Source: Candidatus Methanophagales archaeon (lineage in GTDB: Archaea > Halobacteriota > Syntropharchaeia > Alkanophagales > Methanospirareceae). Taken from it: a stretch of 7,661 nt of DNA. Under the pieces are notes generated by a model. That model did not search any database. It had not been told where the DNA came from and saw only the letters and a program-made list of their open reading frames with translations. Below are positions 167 through 5,817 of the stretch, piece by piece. Numbering within the stretch: the first letter of the stretch is position 1; each line of letters begins with the position of its first letter. The position numbers and the translations under genes were made by a program. The stretch is taken from assembly GCA_030621535.1 (NCBI GenBank), contig JAUXHM010000043.1, positions 1-7,661 of the forward strand, given 5' to 3'.

Positions 167-478
167 CTATCCCTTCAGCACGATTTCTATATGAACGTCT
201 TTGGGTATGGGTACGCGCATAAGTTGTCGCAATGCTCGTTCATCTGCCTCCAAGTCTATCAATCGCTTGTGTATACGCATTTCCCAATGGTCCCATGTAG
301 GCGAACCTTCACCATCAGGGCTTTTTCTACAGGGCACGAGAAGTTTCTTTGTGGGAAGGGGGATGGGTCCCGACATTCTGACTCCCGTTGTATCTGCTAT
401 CTGCCTCACCTGCTGGCATATCCCATCCAGTTGTTTATGGTTCGTGCTCGACAGTTTTATCCGCGCTTTTTGGTCCAT
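167..478 (-). CDS. rps10: 30S ribosomal protein S10 (archaeal uS10)
   Basis: This 103-residue protein is a small-subunit ribosomal component; uS10 sits in the head of the 30S subunit. The length matches archaeal S10 (about 102 residues). The family signature [12 protein letters not shown] is at residues 33-44, followed by the conserved loop region with [18 protein letters not shown] (residues 55-72) and the usual C-terminal strand. The ATG at 478 is preceded by an AGGAAAGGGG purine tract that serves as ribosome binding site. It lies 39 bases downstream of the EF-1A gene on the same strand; the tuf-rps10 order is a classic archaeal translation operon. Nothing in it looks abnormal. Confidence 0.97.
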
Positions 479-517
479 TTCCCCTTTCCTTTTAGTTAGC
501 TCTGCTTGTGCCCTATC

Positions 518-1783
518 CTACCTCGGCTTTACGTCTATTACCATACCCGCAGCAACCGTCTGCCCCATGTCACGGATTGCAAACCTTCCTAACTGTGGTA
601 TCTCCTTTACACGCTCGATAACCAGCGGTCGTGTGGGTTTTATCGTTATGATAGCGGCATCACCGGATTTTATGAAGTCGGGATTTTCTTCTAATACTGC
701 TCCGGTCTTCGGGTCCAGCTTCTTAGAAATTTCCGTTACCGTAGATGCAACCTGAGCGGTATGGCAATGGAAAACCGGGGTGTAACCCACCGTAATTGCA
801 CTTGGATGCTGAAGGACAACTATCTGTGCTGTGAACTCGTCCGCAACCGTTGGTGGGGTGTCCGTATGACCGCAAACGTCTCCCCGCCTTATATCATTCC
901 TGCTTATTCCTCGTACATTCCAGCCGATATTGTCACCTGGAACTGCTTCTGGAATCTCTTCATGGTGCATCTCTATTGTTTTCACCTCACCCGTTTTATC
1001 CGCGGGTTCAAAGATAATCTTATCGCCCTTCTTTAGCTTTCCTGTCTCCACCCGTCCAACGGGAACGGTGCCAACGCCTGTTATTGTATACACATCCTGC
1101 ACAGGTATTCTAAGCGGAAGCTTAATCGGCTTTTCCGGCACTTTCATGAGGTCCATCGCGTCTAACAGGGTAGGTCCATCGAACCACTTCAGTTTATCGC
1201 CACGCTTCGTTACGTTCTCGCCATCAATAGCAGAAATAGGCAAAAACGTGACATGCTCGTCTTTATAGCCCACGGTCTTCAGAAGTGCTAAAATCTCTTT
1301 CTTCAACTCTTCATATCTCTTCTGGTCGTAATTCACCCGGTCCATCTTGTTTACTGCGATAATCAGCTGAGTTACACCTAACGTTCGGGATAAGAATACG
1401 TGCTCTTTTGTTTGCGCCATTATCCCGTCTTTAGCATCCACCACCAGTACCGCCGCATCTGCCTGCGACGTTCCTGTAATCATGTTCTTCACGAAATCCC
1501 TGTGACCGGGGCAATCTACAATGGTATAATAATACTTGTTAGTATCAAACCTCTGATGTGCAACGTCTATGGTAATGCCCCTCTCTCTTTCATCCTTCAA
1601 CGTATCCATCACCCAAGCATACTCGAACGTCGCTTTTCCTATCGCCTCTGCCTTTTTCCTGTACTCCTCTATCAAATGCGGGTCTATCGCTCCTGCTTCC
1701 GTCAGCAACCTTCCCAGCAGCGTTGACTTGCCATGGTCTATATGGCCAATCATTGCCAGATTCATGTGTTCTTTCTCTACCAT
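518..1783 (-). CDS. tuf: Translation elongation factor 1-alpha (aEF1A, EF-Tu homologue)
   Basis: This GTPase delivers aminoacyl-tRNA to the ribosomal A site. The 421-residue length is normal for archaeal EF-1A. The GTP-binding motifs are complete and in order: G1 GHIDHGKS (13-20), G2 RGITID (68-73), G3 DCPGH (90-94), G4 NKMD (145-148) and G5 SA (184-185). Domains 2 and 3 follow, with recognisable stretches such as [13 protein letters not shown] and the terminal [15 protein letters not shown]. The first ATG fits family N-termini, which have a few charged residues before HMNLAMIGH, and has an AGGAG about 10 bases upstream (1794-1798). The likely promoter is the A/T-rich divergent region near 1855-1873. 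It probably co-transcribes with rps10. Confidence 0.97.
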
Positions 1784-1890: not shown

Positions 1891-2808
1891 ATGAAACCGA
1901 AATCCGACTGTATCGCCTGTCTGGTAGAACGAACGAAATACGAGTGCGATATAGCTTTTAACGACGACAGTGAAAAAATCCGTGCAATGGAGGAATTTAT
2001 CGCTTTTCTCATGGCGCATCTCGATGAGGAAGGGAAAGCACCCGCTTTTTTTGGCACGGAAAGGGAAAGGATAATAAAAAGGCGAAGTGGAGTGAAAGAC
2101 CCTCACAGAGAAATAAAAAGGAGAAGCAACGAAGTTGCGAAGGGCTTACTTTCCGAAGTGTCCGACTTTTACGATGCGGCTGTCGCGAAGAGCGGGAATA
2201 AACTGGAAGCGCTGGTACGAATAGCAGCAGCGGCGAATTCGATGGAATATGGAGTAAAGGGGTATTTTTACGATGACGATGCTTTTAAAGATGATTTCGT
2301 GCACACATTAAATGAGAACCTTAATTGGGATAAGGACTTGATAACATCGGCAATAGAGGAGCGAAACAGGATTTTGTATTTGACTGATAATGCTGGCGAG
2401 ATATTTTTTGATGCGTTTGTGATACGGAAATTGATAGAGCTGGGTAAGGAAGTAGTTGTGTCGCCGAAGAGCGCGCCGGTTATAAACGATGCTACAACAG
2501 AAGACGTGAAGGAAGCGATTGAAAAGGTGGATATTTCGGATTCCGGGTTGGTAAAGATAGTTCCAAGTGGTTCATGCATAGGTGTTTTGATAGAAGAAGC
2601 GGAAGAGGAATTTATGGATGTGTTCTGTGATGAGCGCTATCTGGTGATAGCAAAGGGAATGGGGAATTACGAGACGATTTCGGAGTTTGAAGCCCGGGCA
2701 GAGTTGGGGTTAAGCGGCAGGTTGATATATGTCTTCAGGGCGAAATGTGAGCCAATAGCAAGTAATATAGGAGTAAAAAAGGGGGAGCTTGTAGCTAAGC
2801 TCGTGTGA
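1891..2808 (+). CDS. DUF89 / ARMT1-like metal-dependent phosphatase family protein
   Basis: This 305-residue protein matches the archaeal DUF89 family (ARMT1-like domain), known to include metal-dependent phosphatases proposed to remove damaged or overaccumulated sugar phosphates and related metabolites. Visible family motifs, in order, are an N-terminal Cys pair C7-x2-C10, the helix with N116 and EYG (119-121), the core DNAGE at 166-170 followed by D174, APVIND at 195-200, AKGMGNYE at 254-261, and the C-terminal RAKCEPIA (283-290) with GVKKGE (294-299). The Asp/Asn residues of these motifs are the expected metal and phosphate ligands and are all present. No signal peptide is seen, so it should be cytoplasmic. 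There is no Shine-Dalgarno before the ATG and the TATA box is about 25 bases upstream, suggesting a leaderless mRNA. The true substrate cannot be told from sequence. Confidence 0.9.
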   Translation: MKPKSDCIACLVERTKYECDIAFNDDSEKIRAMEEFIAFLMAHLDEEGKAPAFFGTERERIIKRRSGVKDPHREIKRRSNEVAKGLLSEVSDFYDAAVAKSGNKLEALVRIAAAANSMEYGVKGYFYDDDAFKDDFVHTLNENLNWDKDLITSAIEERNRILYLTDNAGEIFFDAFVIRKLIELGKEVVVSPKSAPVINDATTEDVKEAIEKVDISDSGLVKIVPSGSCIGVLIEEAEEEFMDVFCDERYLVIAKGMGNYETISEFEARAELGLSGRLIYVFRAKCEPIASNIGVKKGELVAKLV

Positions 2809-2960: not shown

Positions 2961-4784
2961 TCACCTGTACACCGACTTTGGCTTTTTTTCGTCTCTTCCG
3001 GTGTATTTTAATCTTCCACCGCGGAAATCGAACTCGGGAGGGTTCCTCTCAGCATCTATCAGCTCTCGTGTTCTACCTGCAATTTGTGCTTCGGGATTCG
3101 CTGCCTCTGCCCTTGCCGCACTATTTGCTACGTGTAAATCGTCTATTTTCATCATTCCGGTTGCCGCTTCGGTAGCCGAGTTAAGCGCCTGCAACTTCAC
3201 GCTTAATGGGTCTAGTATCCCCGCTTTCATTACGTCTTTCACGCAGCACTTATCGCTGCCCGATATACCGGCATTCTTATCACCTGCGAAATGATCTGCC
3301 CTGAGTTTCGTAAGTGCATCTATCTGGTTCATTCCATTATTCTTCGCTAACGCCTTTGGTATAGACTCCAGAGCGTCAGCAAAAGCATCCATTGCCAGCT
3401 GCTCCTTACTCGGTATCTTCTTTGCGAATTTCCTCACTCGATACGCACATTCCATTTCTACCGCACCACCGCCGGGTACCACGCGGTTGTCCTCAAACAG
3501 TTGTGCAACGGCGTGCAGGGCGCTTCTTATCTCGCCTACGAGCCCCTCTAAAACCCTGGTTGATGCACCTCGTATAAACATCGTTGCGGATTTCTTATGC
3601 GAGCACTGCTCAAAAAACACGTAGTTATCACCACTTATCTCTCGCTGGACTACTCTTCCCGCAACGCCAAATTTGTCTTCACTGAGGTCACTTACGTCTT
3701 TCACTATCTTTCCTCCCGTAGACCGCTCCAATCGTTTCATGTCCGTTAATTTCACCCTTTTTATCAGCATTATCCCTGCTCGGCGGAACTTGCCCAGTGC
3801 ATCGTCATCCACACCCCAGCGGCAGCAAATCACGTTTGCACCTGATTTCACTACCGGGTCCACGACCGCATCAAAAATCTTTGCTCTTGCCTCCCGGAAC
3901 TCCTTAAACTGCGAAGGTTTTGAGAGTTTTACGTGAAAATCAAGTGCTCCGAGCGTTTCGCCCGCTTTACTGCGTTCTCGTGCTCCCGTACCGGTTTTGA
4001 GTTCTTGTCTCCCCTTTATCTTTGGCTCCTTATGTTCAAGCGGGAAATCAAGCAAAGCTATTCTCGCAGGCGTCATCTCCGTTGGAAGTGCCGCTAAAAC
4101 CTCTCGGTCCACCACGACTCCTTCGGCAAAACCCGTCTCCTGCATTCTGCCCCCGCTTTTTGTTTCTATCGCGATGTCATCCACGTCTATTGACTTATTC
4201 CCCGCACCATCGTCATCGCTATCGTCATCGCTTATTCGTTTTATGCTTTGTACCACCGCATCTGCCAATTTATCTTCCGCATAATAATCACCTTTCTTTA
4301 ACGCGGTCTTTGCCACGCACCGCAAGAGTTCATCGCCTCCTGCACCTCTCACGTCCACCTCAGCCGCTATTTCAGCTAAAACTTCTTTTACATGCTCAAG
4401 AGCGAGCTCGTAACCTTTCACCACGATATTTTGATGCACACCCTCATTTTTCAGCTCAAATCCACGCTTCACCAGTTCTCCCGTCAGAATCATCACCGTA
4501 GCTACGCCATCTCCCACTCTCTCCCCCTGTGTTAACCCTGCATTTATCAGCATGTCCGCAGTAGGGTGCATATATTTCAGTTCCTTTATCAGGCTGTATG
4601 CGTTGCCCGAAACGAGGTCAGCGGCTTCTATTTTAGTTGCCCCCTGTGTTATCAACATCTTTGACCCAAAAGGACCGAGAATCGGTTTAAACATATCAGA
4701 AAAAGTAGCGGAAACCCGCACATTCGCCTCTTGTATCTCTTCCGGCGATACGGCTCCCGGTGGCAATTCCTCCTTTATTGTCAT
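2961..4784 (-). CDS. Divergent group II chaperonin (thermosome-like subunit)
   Basis: Group II chaperonins form cytoplasmic double rings that fold proteins using ATP. At 607 residues this is longer than typical thermosome subunits (about 540-550). Clear family features are GDG (91-93), GYELALE (124-130), an apical domain with GANVICCRWGVDDDALGKF (315-333), EDNRVVPGGGAVEME (431-445) carrying the conserved hydrolysis Asp (D432), FADALESIPKALA (468-480) and ILDPLSVKLQALNSATEAA (523-541). The nucleotide site is altered: GPKG reads GPFG (37-40), the NDGAT segment aligns by spacing with GNAYS (60-64) so its Asp is Asn61, and GDGTTT reads GDGVAT. There is an acidic insert (186-192), an extra loop around 252-285, and a long charged tail (about 553-607) replacing the usual Gly/Met-rich end. 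The ATG has GAGGAGA upstream (4791-4797). It is probably a specialised paralogue rather than the housekeeping subunit. Confidence 0.9.
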   Translation of the reverse strand: MTIKEELPPGAVSPEEIQEANVRVSATFSDMFKPILGPFGSKMLITQGATKIEAADLVSGNAYSLIKELKYMHPTADMLINAGLTQGERVGDGVATVMILTGELVKRGFELKNEGVHQNIVVKGYELALEHVKEVLAEIAAEVDVRGAGGDELLRCVAKTALKKGDYYAEDKLADAVVQSIKRISDDDSDDDGAGNKSIDVDDIAIETKSGGRMQETGFAEGVVVDREVLAALPTEMTPARIALLDFPLEHKEPKIKGRQELKTGTGARERSKAGETLGALDFHVKLSKPSQFKEFREARAKIFDAVVDPVVKSGANVICCRWGVDDDALGKFRRAGIMLIKRVKLTDMKRLERSTGGKIVKDVSDLSEDKFGVAGRVVQREISGDNYVFFEQCSHKKSATMFIRGASTRVLEGLVGEIRSALHAVAQLFEDNRVVPGGGAVEMECAYRVRKFAKKIPSKEQLAMDAFADALESIPKALAKNNGMNQIDALTKLRADHFAGDKNAGISGSDKCCVKDVMKAGILDPLSVKLQALNSATEAATGMMKIDDLHVANSAARAEAANPEAQIAGRTRELIDAERNPPEFDFRGGRLKYTGRDEKKPKSVYR

Positions 4785-4902: not shown

Positions 4903-5193
4903 ATGGACAAGAAGGAAAAAGACAAACTTAGGAACGCACTCAAAAAATATTTTGGAGAAATTTACGCGATTTATGCTGGAGGGAACTTCAGTGAAGGCAG
5001 CTTCTACGATTGCTTGAAGCACTTTATTAAAGATTCAGGACGGATTTTAGGATATTCAACGTTCCCGTTTGTTCTGCCAAAGAGAACTGAAGTGGGCATA
5101 CCCGACTTTTTCGTCAGAAAGAACGGGGAGATTGTCGGGCATATCGAAGCGAAAGGGGTGGATAAGAACCTGGAGAATCTTCATTTGACATAG
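4903..5193 (+). pseudogene. 5' fragment of a restriction-modification type gene (PD-(D/E)xK nuclease domain)
   Basis: The 96-residue product resembles the N-terminal nuclease part of large single-polypeptide restriction-modification enzymes. The family pattern is visible: a helix with YAIYAGGNFSEGSF (21-34), then GIPDFFV (65-71), then IVGHIEAKG (77-85). These supply the PD (67-68) and ExK (82-84) residues of a PD-(D/E)xK metal-dependent nuclease site. Family members normally run on past ENLHLT with a conserved segment leading to a methyltransferase domain; here a stop follows at once, so only a small part of the gene remains. The ATG at 4903 has a weak purine-rich leader (AGAGAAAG) and A/T-rich DNA about 40 bases upstream. 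The break at about 5190 lies within a few bases of the end of the vapC remnant. The assignment is from motif pattern only; a short stand-alone nuclease is less likely. Confidence 0.65.
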
Positions 5194-5373: not shown

Positions 5374-5578
5374 CTCTATCTGCCCGTATCAGTTCAGCAG
5401 CACTCACATCTACCTTCATCTCTTTCCTTATCCCCTTTGCCTCAGCAAGTAATCTTTCCTTACTCTTATCTTTGACCAGTTCTTCCACCATAGTTCTTAT
5501 TACCTCCTGCCAGTTTACTTCTTTCATCTCTTCCATCATCTTACGTAATTTCACCGGAACTCTTATGCTATACTTCAC
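5321..5578 (-). CDS. vapB: VapB-type ribbon-helix-helix antitoxin (probably orphan)
   Basis: The 85-residue frame has the typical archaeal VapB layout. There is a short strand and helix at the N-terminus (YSIRVPVKLRKMMEEM, 3-18), then VNWQEVIRTMVEEL (21-34) completing the ribbon-helix-helix DNA-binding fold, a charged helical linker, and a C-terminal toxin-binding tail ending near AELIRADRDAR (61-71). The last 14 residues (SSNPWFKCYCCDIF) look like read-through into vapC sequence and overlap it by 53 bases. The only start available is GTG at 5578, which overlaps the stop of the IS630 fragment (GTGTGA), with no convincing ribosome binding site. The native start and promoter may therefore have been lost. 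Since the partner toxin is dead, this is an orphan antitoxin that may be decaying. Confidence 0.7.
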   Translation of the reverse strand: MKYSIRVPVKLRKMMEEMKEVNWQEVIRTMVEELVKDKSKERLLAEAKGIRKEMKVDVSAAELIRADRDARSSNPWFKCYCCDIF

Positions 5579-5817
5579 ACCGCCACAGATTGAACTTTTT
5601 CAAAACTCTGAAACCGCAGTGTGAGTAAAGAGTCAAGTTCTTGTTTGTGGGTGGTATCTGCCTTGTTCAGGCAGTCGGAGATGGCATTTTTAAAATCCAT
5701 AAACTCGGAATAATATTTCGAATAGAGGCACTGTTTCTTAACAAATTTCCAGAGACGTTCAATGAGATTTAAATTAGGCGAATAAGGTGGTATATAAAGC
5801 AATTCGATATCAAGAGG
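5575..5817 (-). pseudogene. C-terminal fragment of an IS630-family transposase
   Basis: The frame reads LDIELLYIPPYSPNLNLIER and then LWKFVKKQCLYSKYYSEF, the hallmark C-terminal block of IS630-type DDE transposases. The Glu of NLNLIERLW (codon at about 5758-5760) is the third catalytic acid and is present. The frame ends with TGA at 5577-5575, and a TTG at 5802 is the only start-like codon, so this is not a stand-alone gene. Upstream, homology stops abruptly at about 5817, where the palindromic repeat begins; the first two catalytic Asp residues are missing. About 80 residues remain of roughly 330. Its stop codon runs into the start of vapB. Confidence 0.85.

What the first reader, a model, noticed from the sequence alone, without database searches (positions are those of the whole stretch)
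2961..4784. Chaperonin with a rewritten ATP site
The NDGAT motif of group II chaperonins aligns by exact spacing (12 residues to the conserved HP, 31 to the Asp of GDG) with GNAYS, so a catalytic Asp is Asn61. GPKG is GPFG and GDGTTT is GDGVAT, while D92 and D432 are kept. The other hydrolysis Asp being retained suggests altered or slow ATP turnover rather than simple decay, because the remaining 607 codons are open and well conserved. Divergent extra chaperonins have been reported in Methanosarcina acetivorans; whether this belongs with them is unknown.
Basis: partly seen in the sequence, partly recalled or inferred. Interest (0 to 1): 0.75.

Follow-up and report, generated by a model that had tools for sequence, protein, structure and literature searches.

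The report
Thermosome paralogue without catalytic aspartates
This gene, kept under purifying selection in ANME-1 methane-oxidising archaea and found in their close kin, encodes a protein-folding-cage subunit in which both aspartates that drive ATP breakdown are replaced, so it is predicted not to hydrolyse ATP and likely works as a passive partner beside the cell's normal chaperonins.

Summary
The 607-aa ORF at 2961-4784 (-) is a real group II chaperonin in an ANME-1 (Methanophagales) genome that also has three canonical thermosome genes. But D432 is not the other hydrolysis Asp; it aligns with Mm-Cpn D397. The catalytic D386 aligns, without a gap, with Ser421, so both catalytic Asps are gone.

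This holds for the whole clade: Asp at position 61 in 0 of 117 rows with a residue there and at 421 in 0 of 121. Of 311 chaperonin rows outside it, Asp is kept in 308 of 308 and 303 of 310, and none lacks both. The clade is supported 100/100. The gene is in 48 of 51 Methanophagales genomes and 5 of 7 other genomes of the class searched, with dN/dS 0.10-0.20. Most members carry a conserved 25-residue lid-tip insert and a conserved basic C-terminal tail. It is not the Methanosarcinaceae divergent clade.

Predicted: no ATP turnover. Most likely a non-hydrolysing partner of the canonical thermosome; a static scaffold, or a catalytic acid relocated to Glu418, remain open. Nothing was tested at the bench.

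The parts
2961..4784 (-). chaperonin gene, 607 aa plus stop
4665..4676 (-). GPFG, residues 37-40 (GPKG or GPRG in canonical subunits)
   Evidence: P38 kept in 106 of 106 family rows with a residue
4602..4604 (-). Asn61 codon (AAC) at the position of Mm-Cpn catalytic D60
4497..4514 (-). GDGVAT, residues 91-96; GDG kept, both following Thr of GDGTT replaced
   Evidence: D92 in 107 of 107 family rows; T94 now I 85, V 21, T 1; T95 now A 100, S 5, T 2
4281..4313 (-). shortened nucleotide-sensing-loop region, residues 158-168 (loop name recalled)
3942..4031 (-). lid-tip region, residues 252-281, holding an insert of 25 residues relative to canonical subunits
   Evidence: 38 against 13 residues in the compared stretch; insert in 101 of 110 family rows; conservation; pLDDT under 50 at 257-282
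3531..3533 (-). Glu418 codon, an acid gained one helix turn before the lost Asp
   Evidence: E 85, D 22, Q 2, G 1 in 110 family rows; A, G or S in most others
3522..3524 (-). Ser421 codon (AGC) at the position of Mm-Cpn catalytic D386
3489..3491 (-). Asp432 codon, equal to Mm-Cpn D397; not the catalytic Asp
3465..3473 (-). GGG, residues 438-440, kept
   Evidence: 438 and 439 are G in 110 of 110 family rows
2964..3083 (-). C-terminal tail, residues 568-607, with the motif RGGRLKY
   Evidence: motif in 92 of 110 family rows, in 0 of 160 non-family proteins and 0 of 23 other class rows

Best explanation
This gene encodes a group II chaperonin paralogue that lacks both catalytic aspartates throughout its clade, so it is predicted not to hydrolyse ATP and likely acts as a non-cycling subunit beside the canonical thermosome subunits of the same cell. 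Shown: the replacements, their conservation, the single clade, purifying selection and coexistence with canonical genes. Inferred: without the equivalents of Asp60 and Asp386 the attacking water is not held, so the subunit would not pass through the ATP cycle. GDG, GPxG and GGG are kept, so it may still bind nucleotide, though probably more weakly because the phosphate-loop Thr are gone. In a mixed ring it would form a fixed sector, holding a client or partner through its changed lid tip and tail while canonical neighbours turn over ATP. Mixed-ring assembly is the least certain step.
For: Both catalytic positions changed in every clade row examined (0 of 117 and 0 of 121 with Asp) and never both outside. 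One clade, 100/100, also found when the active-site columns are left out. dN/dS 0.10-0.20 in 28 pairs. In 48 of 51 Methanophagales genomes. Three canonical genes with both Asps in the same genome. Tail to tail with a canonical gene in five genomes of three genera. Published: mutating the D386 equivalent abolishes ATPase (PMC5473854, PMC5019054 passages); in yeast CCT3, 6 and 8 catalytic-Asp mutations do not stop growth (PMC9117761 passage).
Against: No ATPase, binding or assembly data. An acid is gained at 418 in 107 of 110 family rows and both sister rows, which could stand in for the lost Asp. Identity to canonical subunits is only about 35%, the loop before Asn61 and the N-terminus differ from canonical ones, and the lid insert may hinder ring closure, so it may not enter mixed rings. 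The linkage to canonical genes was seen in 5 of 48 genomes only. The single-subunit model says nothing on rings.
Confidence: 0.45

Rival explanations
1. It forms its own static ring or a smaller assembly and works as a binding-only scaffold or assembly chaperone for a lineage-specific client, as the chaperonin-like BBS proteins do.
For: Both catalytic Asps replaced; conserved lid insert and tail not found in other chaperonins examined; single-gene unit. MKKS and BBS12 are reported to have a changed hydrolysis motif and not to form CCT-like rings (PMC2846930, PMC5534436 passages).
Against: GDG, GPxG and GGG stay conserved, unlike the hydrolysis motif of BBS12. A hydrolysis-dead Mm-Cpn homo-oligomer (D386A) fails to replace GroEL in E. 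coli (PMC5019054 passage). No client is known.
Confidence: 0.3
2. The catalytic acid has moved: Glu418, one helix turn before the lost Asp, activates the water and the protein is a slow or differently tuned ATPase.
For: Position 418 is E or D in 107 of 110 family rows and E in both sister rows and in the 9 added members, whereas A, G or S is usual elsewhere. Residues 409-431 are one predicted helix.
Against: The first Asp (D60) is also gone in every clade row with a residue there, replaced by N, S, K, H or T, and no acid takes its place at 61; Q or G at 418 in 3 of 110 rows. Distance to the nucleotide could not be measured.
Confidence: 0.2
3. The changes are sequencing or assembly errors, or decay of a redundant gene.
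For: The genome is a draft of 170 contigs, 60.6% complete.
Against: The same replacements in relatives from many separate assemblies, and dN/dS 0.10-0.20.
Confidence: 0.01

Closest known systems
Canonical archaeal thermosome subunits (Mm-Cpn, T. acidophilum thermosome)
   Same: Same fold over about 500 residues, PF00118, GDG, GPxG and GGG kept
   Different: Both catalytic Asps replaced, phosphate-loop Thr replaced, 25-residue lid-tip insert, basic C-terminal tail; about 35% identity
Divergent Methanosarcinaceae chaperonins (type 4 here; taken to include M. acetivorans subunits 4 and 5)
   Same: Extra divergent thermosome paralogues in a related class
   Different: Separate 100/100 clade; both catalytic Asps kept in 12 of 12 tree rows
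Other divergent chaperonins of the same class (DIV rows)
   Same: Same class; 5 of 15 rows lack the D386 equivalent
   Different: All 15 keep the D60 equivalent and lie outside the clade
Chaperonin-like MKKS, BBS10 and BBS12 of vertebrates
   Same: Paralogues with changed ATP-hydrolysis sites (PMC2846930, PMC5534436 passages)
   Different: The GDG motif is kept here; common ancestry beyond group II was not tested
Eukaryotic CCT/TRiC
   Same: Mixed rings in which some subunits tolerate catalytic-Asp mutation (PMC9117761 passage)
   Different: Natural CCT subunits keep the catalytic Asps (recalled; only CCT5 seen, PMC5473854 passage)

Membership tests
Group II chaperonin superfamily (PF00118) | Match over the curated cut-off | tested here: met
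   421.1 bits against 34.3
Group II chaperonin superfamily (PF00118) | Three-domain chaperonin fold with built-in lid | tested here: met
Canonical, ATP-hydrolysing thermosome subunit | Catalytic Asp of NDG (Mm-Cpn D60) | tested here: not met
   Asn61
Canonical, ATP-hydrolysing thermosome subunit | Catalytic Asp of the intermediate domain (Mm-Cpn D386) | tested here: not met
   Ser421
Canonical, ATP-hydrolysing thermosome subunit | NCBIfam thermosome models over cut-off | tested here: inconclusive
   thermosome_arch 401.5 against 671.1 and thermosome_alpha 420.8 against 450 fail; thermosome_beta 401.5 against 400 just passes
Canonical, ATP-hydrolysing thermosome subunit | ATPase activity and double-ring assembly | not testable with these tools
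   needs purified protein
Divergent Methanosarcinaceae chaperonin clade | Falls inside that clade in a tree | tested here: not met
   the two are separate, each 100/100
BBS chaperonin-like proteins | Common descent with MKKS, BBS10 or BBS12 | not tested
   no BBS sequence was compared; used as a functional analogy only

The most novel reading that the evidence does not exclude
Archaea have a true pseudo-chaperonin: an ancient thermosome paralogue that gave up ATP hydrolysis once, before its class diversified, and became a static scaffold or fixed ring sector with its own lid tip and tail, serving a client of methane- and alkane-oxidising archaea.
Probability: 0.4. Interest if true: 0.8.

Novelty: new variant of a known kind. 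Interest (0 to 1): 0.62.

Why it matters
Chaperonins are the textbook ATP-driven folding machines. A family kept across an archaeal class with both catalytic Asps replaced would mean that a ring subunit can be selected for something other than its ATP cycle, as eukaryotes did with the BBS proteins, and would give a simple system in which to ask what a non-hydrolysing subunit does. It also marks a conserved, unstudied gene in ANME-1, archaea that oxidise methane in the sea floor.

Tried and rejected
Rejected: D432 as the second hydrolysis Asp. Rejected: the Methanosarcinaceae clade as home of this gene; decay; a conserved operon partner.

Rows dropped: L096-L098 were fetched as a possible further divergent Methanolobus chaperonin but did not match the query at 1e-10, so they are not in the tree; I take them for group I GroEL, untested. 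Class rows under 450 aa were left out of the tree. DIV_L078 and MSx_P0209 were left out of the second tree as long branches. L038 was left out of dN/dS because its start string was not found. Both trees warn of long branches and odd composition in some rows.

Led nowhere: no paper found for GroEL D398A with D52 (0 papers). Term look-ups in PMC8346469 gave no catalytic residue, and in two ANME-1 genome papers neither chaperonin nor thermosome occurs in the main text. The host of the sister rows P0251 and P0256 was not found: of 392 phylum genomes only G052 and G053 matched P0256 at 1e-105, at 38-39% identity, through their own family members. No model coordinates were at hand, so Glu418 could not be measured against a nucleotide.

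In print: the listings of my searches for chaperonin with ANME-1 (5 papers), Methanosarcina acetivorans chaperonins (30 papers, 20 listed), divergent Methanosarcina thermosomes (13 papers) and thermosome with Methanophagales, Syntrophoarchaeum or ANME-1 (68 papers, 20 listed) showed no title or abstract start that reports this family. The library holds open-access papers only.

Full report
What is there. The ORF at 2961-4784 on the minus strand encodes 607 aa and matches PF00118 with 421.1 bits. Its nearest named relatives are ANME-1 proteins (ANME-1 cluster archaeon GoMg1, 96% identity), so the window comes from a Methanophagales genome, an assembly of 1.09 Mb in 170 contigs judged 60.6% complete. 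That genome has three further chaperonin genes, on contigs C73, C13 and C154, each with Asp at both catalytic positions. The AlphaFold model (58-row alignment, mean pLDDT 79.4, pTM 0.74) matches group II chaperonins over about 500 residues.

The two catalytic positions. In the Mm-Cpn rows, chain 5w74 (titled D386A deltaLid mutant) differs from 3j3x at 386, the second Asp of VDDAV; the Asp of EDGR is 397. The query has EIRSALHAV there, with no gap between the IRG and GGG landmarks: the spacing is 34 in all 28 family rows, both sister rows and 25 of the 26 canonical rows that the pattern found, one being 35. For CCT5 the literature says that Asp73 and Asp404 hold the attacking water and that mutating the second abolishes ATPase in Mm-Cpn and GroEL (PMC5473854, passages seen). 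I equate these with D60 and D386 by motif; CCT5 was not aligned residue by residue here. Mm-Cpn D386A binds ATP but cannot hydrolyse it, and no longer replaces GroEL well (PMC5019054, passages seen).

Family-wide counts. In 110 aligned rows over 40% identical to the query (loci and protein clusters, all distinct but many close), position 61 is N 98, S 5, K 2, H 1, with 4 gaps; position 421 is S 108, N 2. Nine further members found with a profile (P0242-P0250; P0245 is 100% identical to the L058 query row) give N 6, K 3 and N 7, S 2; two sister rows (P0251, P0256) give T, S and S, S. Together Asp at 61 is 0 of 117 rows with a residue and at 421 is 0 of 121. Of 311 rows outside the clade (293 distinct), Asp at 61 is 308 of 308 with a residue (3 gaps) and at 421 is 303 of 310 (1 gap; the rest E, A, C, R, T, Q, N); none lacks both. 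These outside rows are not a random sample: most are near kin of the query or Methanosarcinaceae, and some tree rows occur twice. Other nucleotide features: GDG kept in 107 of 107 family rows with a residue, T94 replaced (I 85, V 21, T 1), T95 replaced (A 100, S 5, T 2), P of GPxG in 106 of 106, GG at 438-439 in 110 of 110. The two sister rows have RDG in place of GDG. Twelve positions are at least 93% one residue outside the family and differ in its majority; 61, 62, 94 and 421 are among them.

New conserved features. A lid-tip insert of 25 residues is present in 101 of 110 family rows. Over 58 non-redundant full-length rows (from 98 with identity above 55.5% and more than 560 aa) the window 252-281 has mean conservation 0.885 against 0.795 for the protein, rank 45 of 564 windows of 30, although the model gives 257-282 a pLDDT under 50. 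A C-terminal motif like RGGRxKY is in 92 of 110 family rows; of the 18 without it, one is a fragment and 17 differ by one residue. It is in none of 160 non-family proteins or 23 other class rows. An acid is gained at 418 (E 85, D 22, Q 2, G 1) and 420 is K or R in 110 of 110.

Evolution. In a tree of 80 rows the 23 family rows are one side of a branch with 100/100 support, and the 12 Methanosarcinaceae rows are another. A second tree of 85 rows, built without the active-site columns, unites family and sister rows with SH-aLRT 100 (quick method, no bootstrap). One ancient change at both sites is the simplest reading. The gene is in 48 of 51 Methanophagales genomes (not found in G001, G003, G023; pieces only in G028, G035, G038; mean completeness about 83% by my own addition) and in 5 of 7 other genomes of the class (not in G054, G056). 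dN/dS is 0.10-0.20 in 28 pairs of eight Methanophagales genes.

Context. No neighbour family is shared by more than 5 of 24 loci. In five genomes of three genera (G009, G018, G020, G026, G027) the gene lies tail to tail with a canonical thermosome gene on the same contig. That hints at a shared role but may be inherited position.

Mechanism. With both water-positioning Asps gone and the phosphate-loop Thr replaced, ATP turnover is predicted to be lost; GDG and GPxG suggest that nucleotide may still bind. I commit to a non-hydrolysing subunit beside the canonical thermosome. Yeast CCT gives a precedent: catalytic-Asp mutations in CCT3, 6 and 8 did not stop growth (PMC9117761 passage). In the same class, two of three tandem divergent pairs have one partner without the D386 equivalent while keeping D60 (L077, L081; in L083 both keep it). 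A static scaffold like MKKS or BBS12 (PMC2846930, PMC5534436 passages) and a relocated catalytic acid at Glu418 stay open.

Novelty. Eukaryotic chaperonin paralogues with altered hydrolysis sites are known. An archaeal family with both catalytic Asps replaced across a class did not appear in the listings of my searches, which cover open-access papers only. I rate it a new variant of a known kind.

Noticed in passing
L077, L081, L083 (genomes G053, G057, G056): Tandem pairs of divergent chaperonins; in L077 and L081 one partner lacks the D386 equivalent but keeps D60, in L083 both keep Asp.
   Followed up: partly
genomes G051, G052, G057: Six PF00118 matches each (in G051 two are partial, at contig ends), more than the one to five group II genes per archaeal genome given in PMC6420498 (passage).
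   Followed up: no
P0251 and P0256 (unnamed source): Sister rows with TTTGY or TTSGY at the NDG site, RDG in place of GDG, and EIKS at the D386 site: a still more altered chaperonin of unknown host.
   Followed up: partly
Methanosarcinaceae type-4 chaperonins (P0122-P0211): A second divergent clade with CGDGTK and a mostly Asn D397 position, but Asp at 61 in 87 of 87 and at 421 in 88 of 89 rows with a residue.
   Followed up: partly
window 4903-5193 (+): A 96-aa ORF is the start of a 542-aa protein of relative L037 (76% identity over residues 1-125) with weak restriction and N6-methylase domain matches; it is cut short here, with a transposase-like piece (DDE_3) nearby at 5575-5802.
   Followed up: partly
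window 167-1783 (-) and 1891-2808 (+): Ribosomal protein S10 and an EF-1 alpha-like GTPase on the minus strand, and an ARMT1-like (DUF89) protein between them and the chaperonin on the plus strand.
   Followed up: no
L003 (G000:C154): The third canonical thermosome reads AWTKGY where GPKG is expected, so its first part looks frame-shifted or misassembled in this draft.
   Followed up: no
P0082: A 1047-aa protein with a chaperonin domain, Asp at the D60 site and Gln at the D386 site.
   Followed up: no
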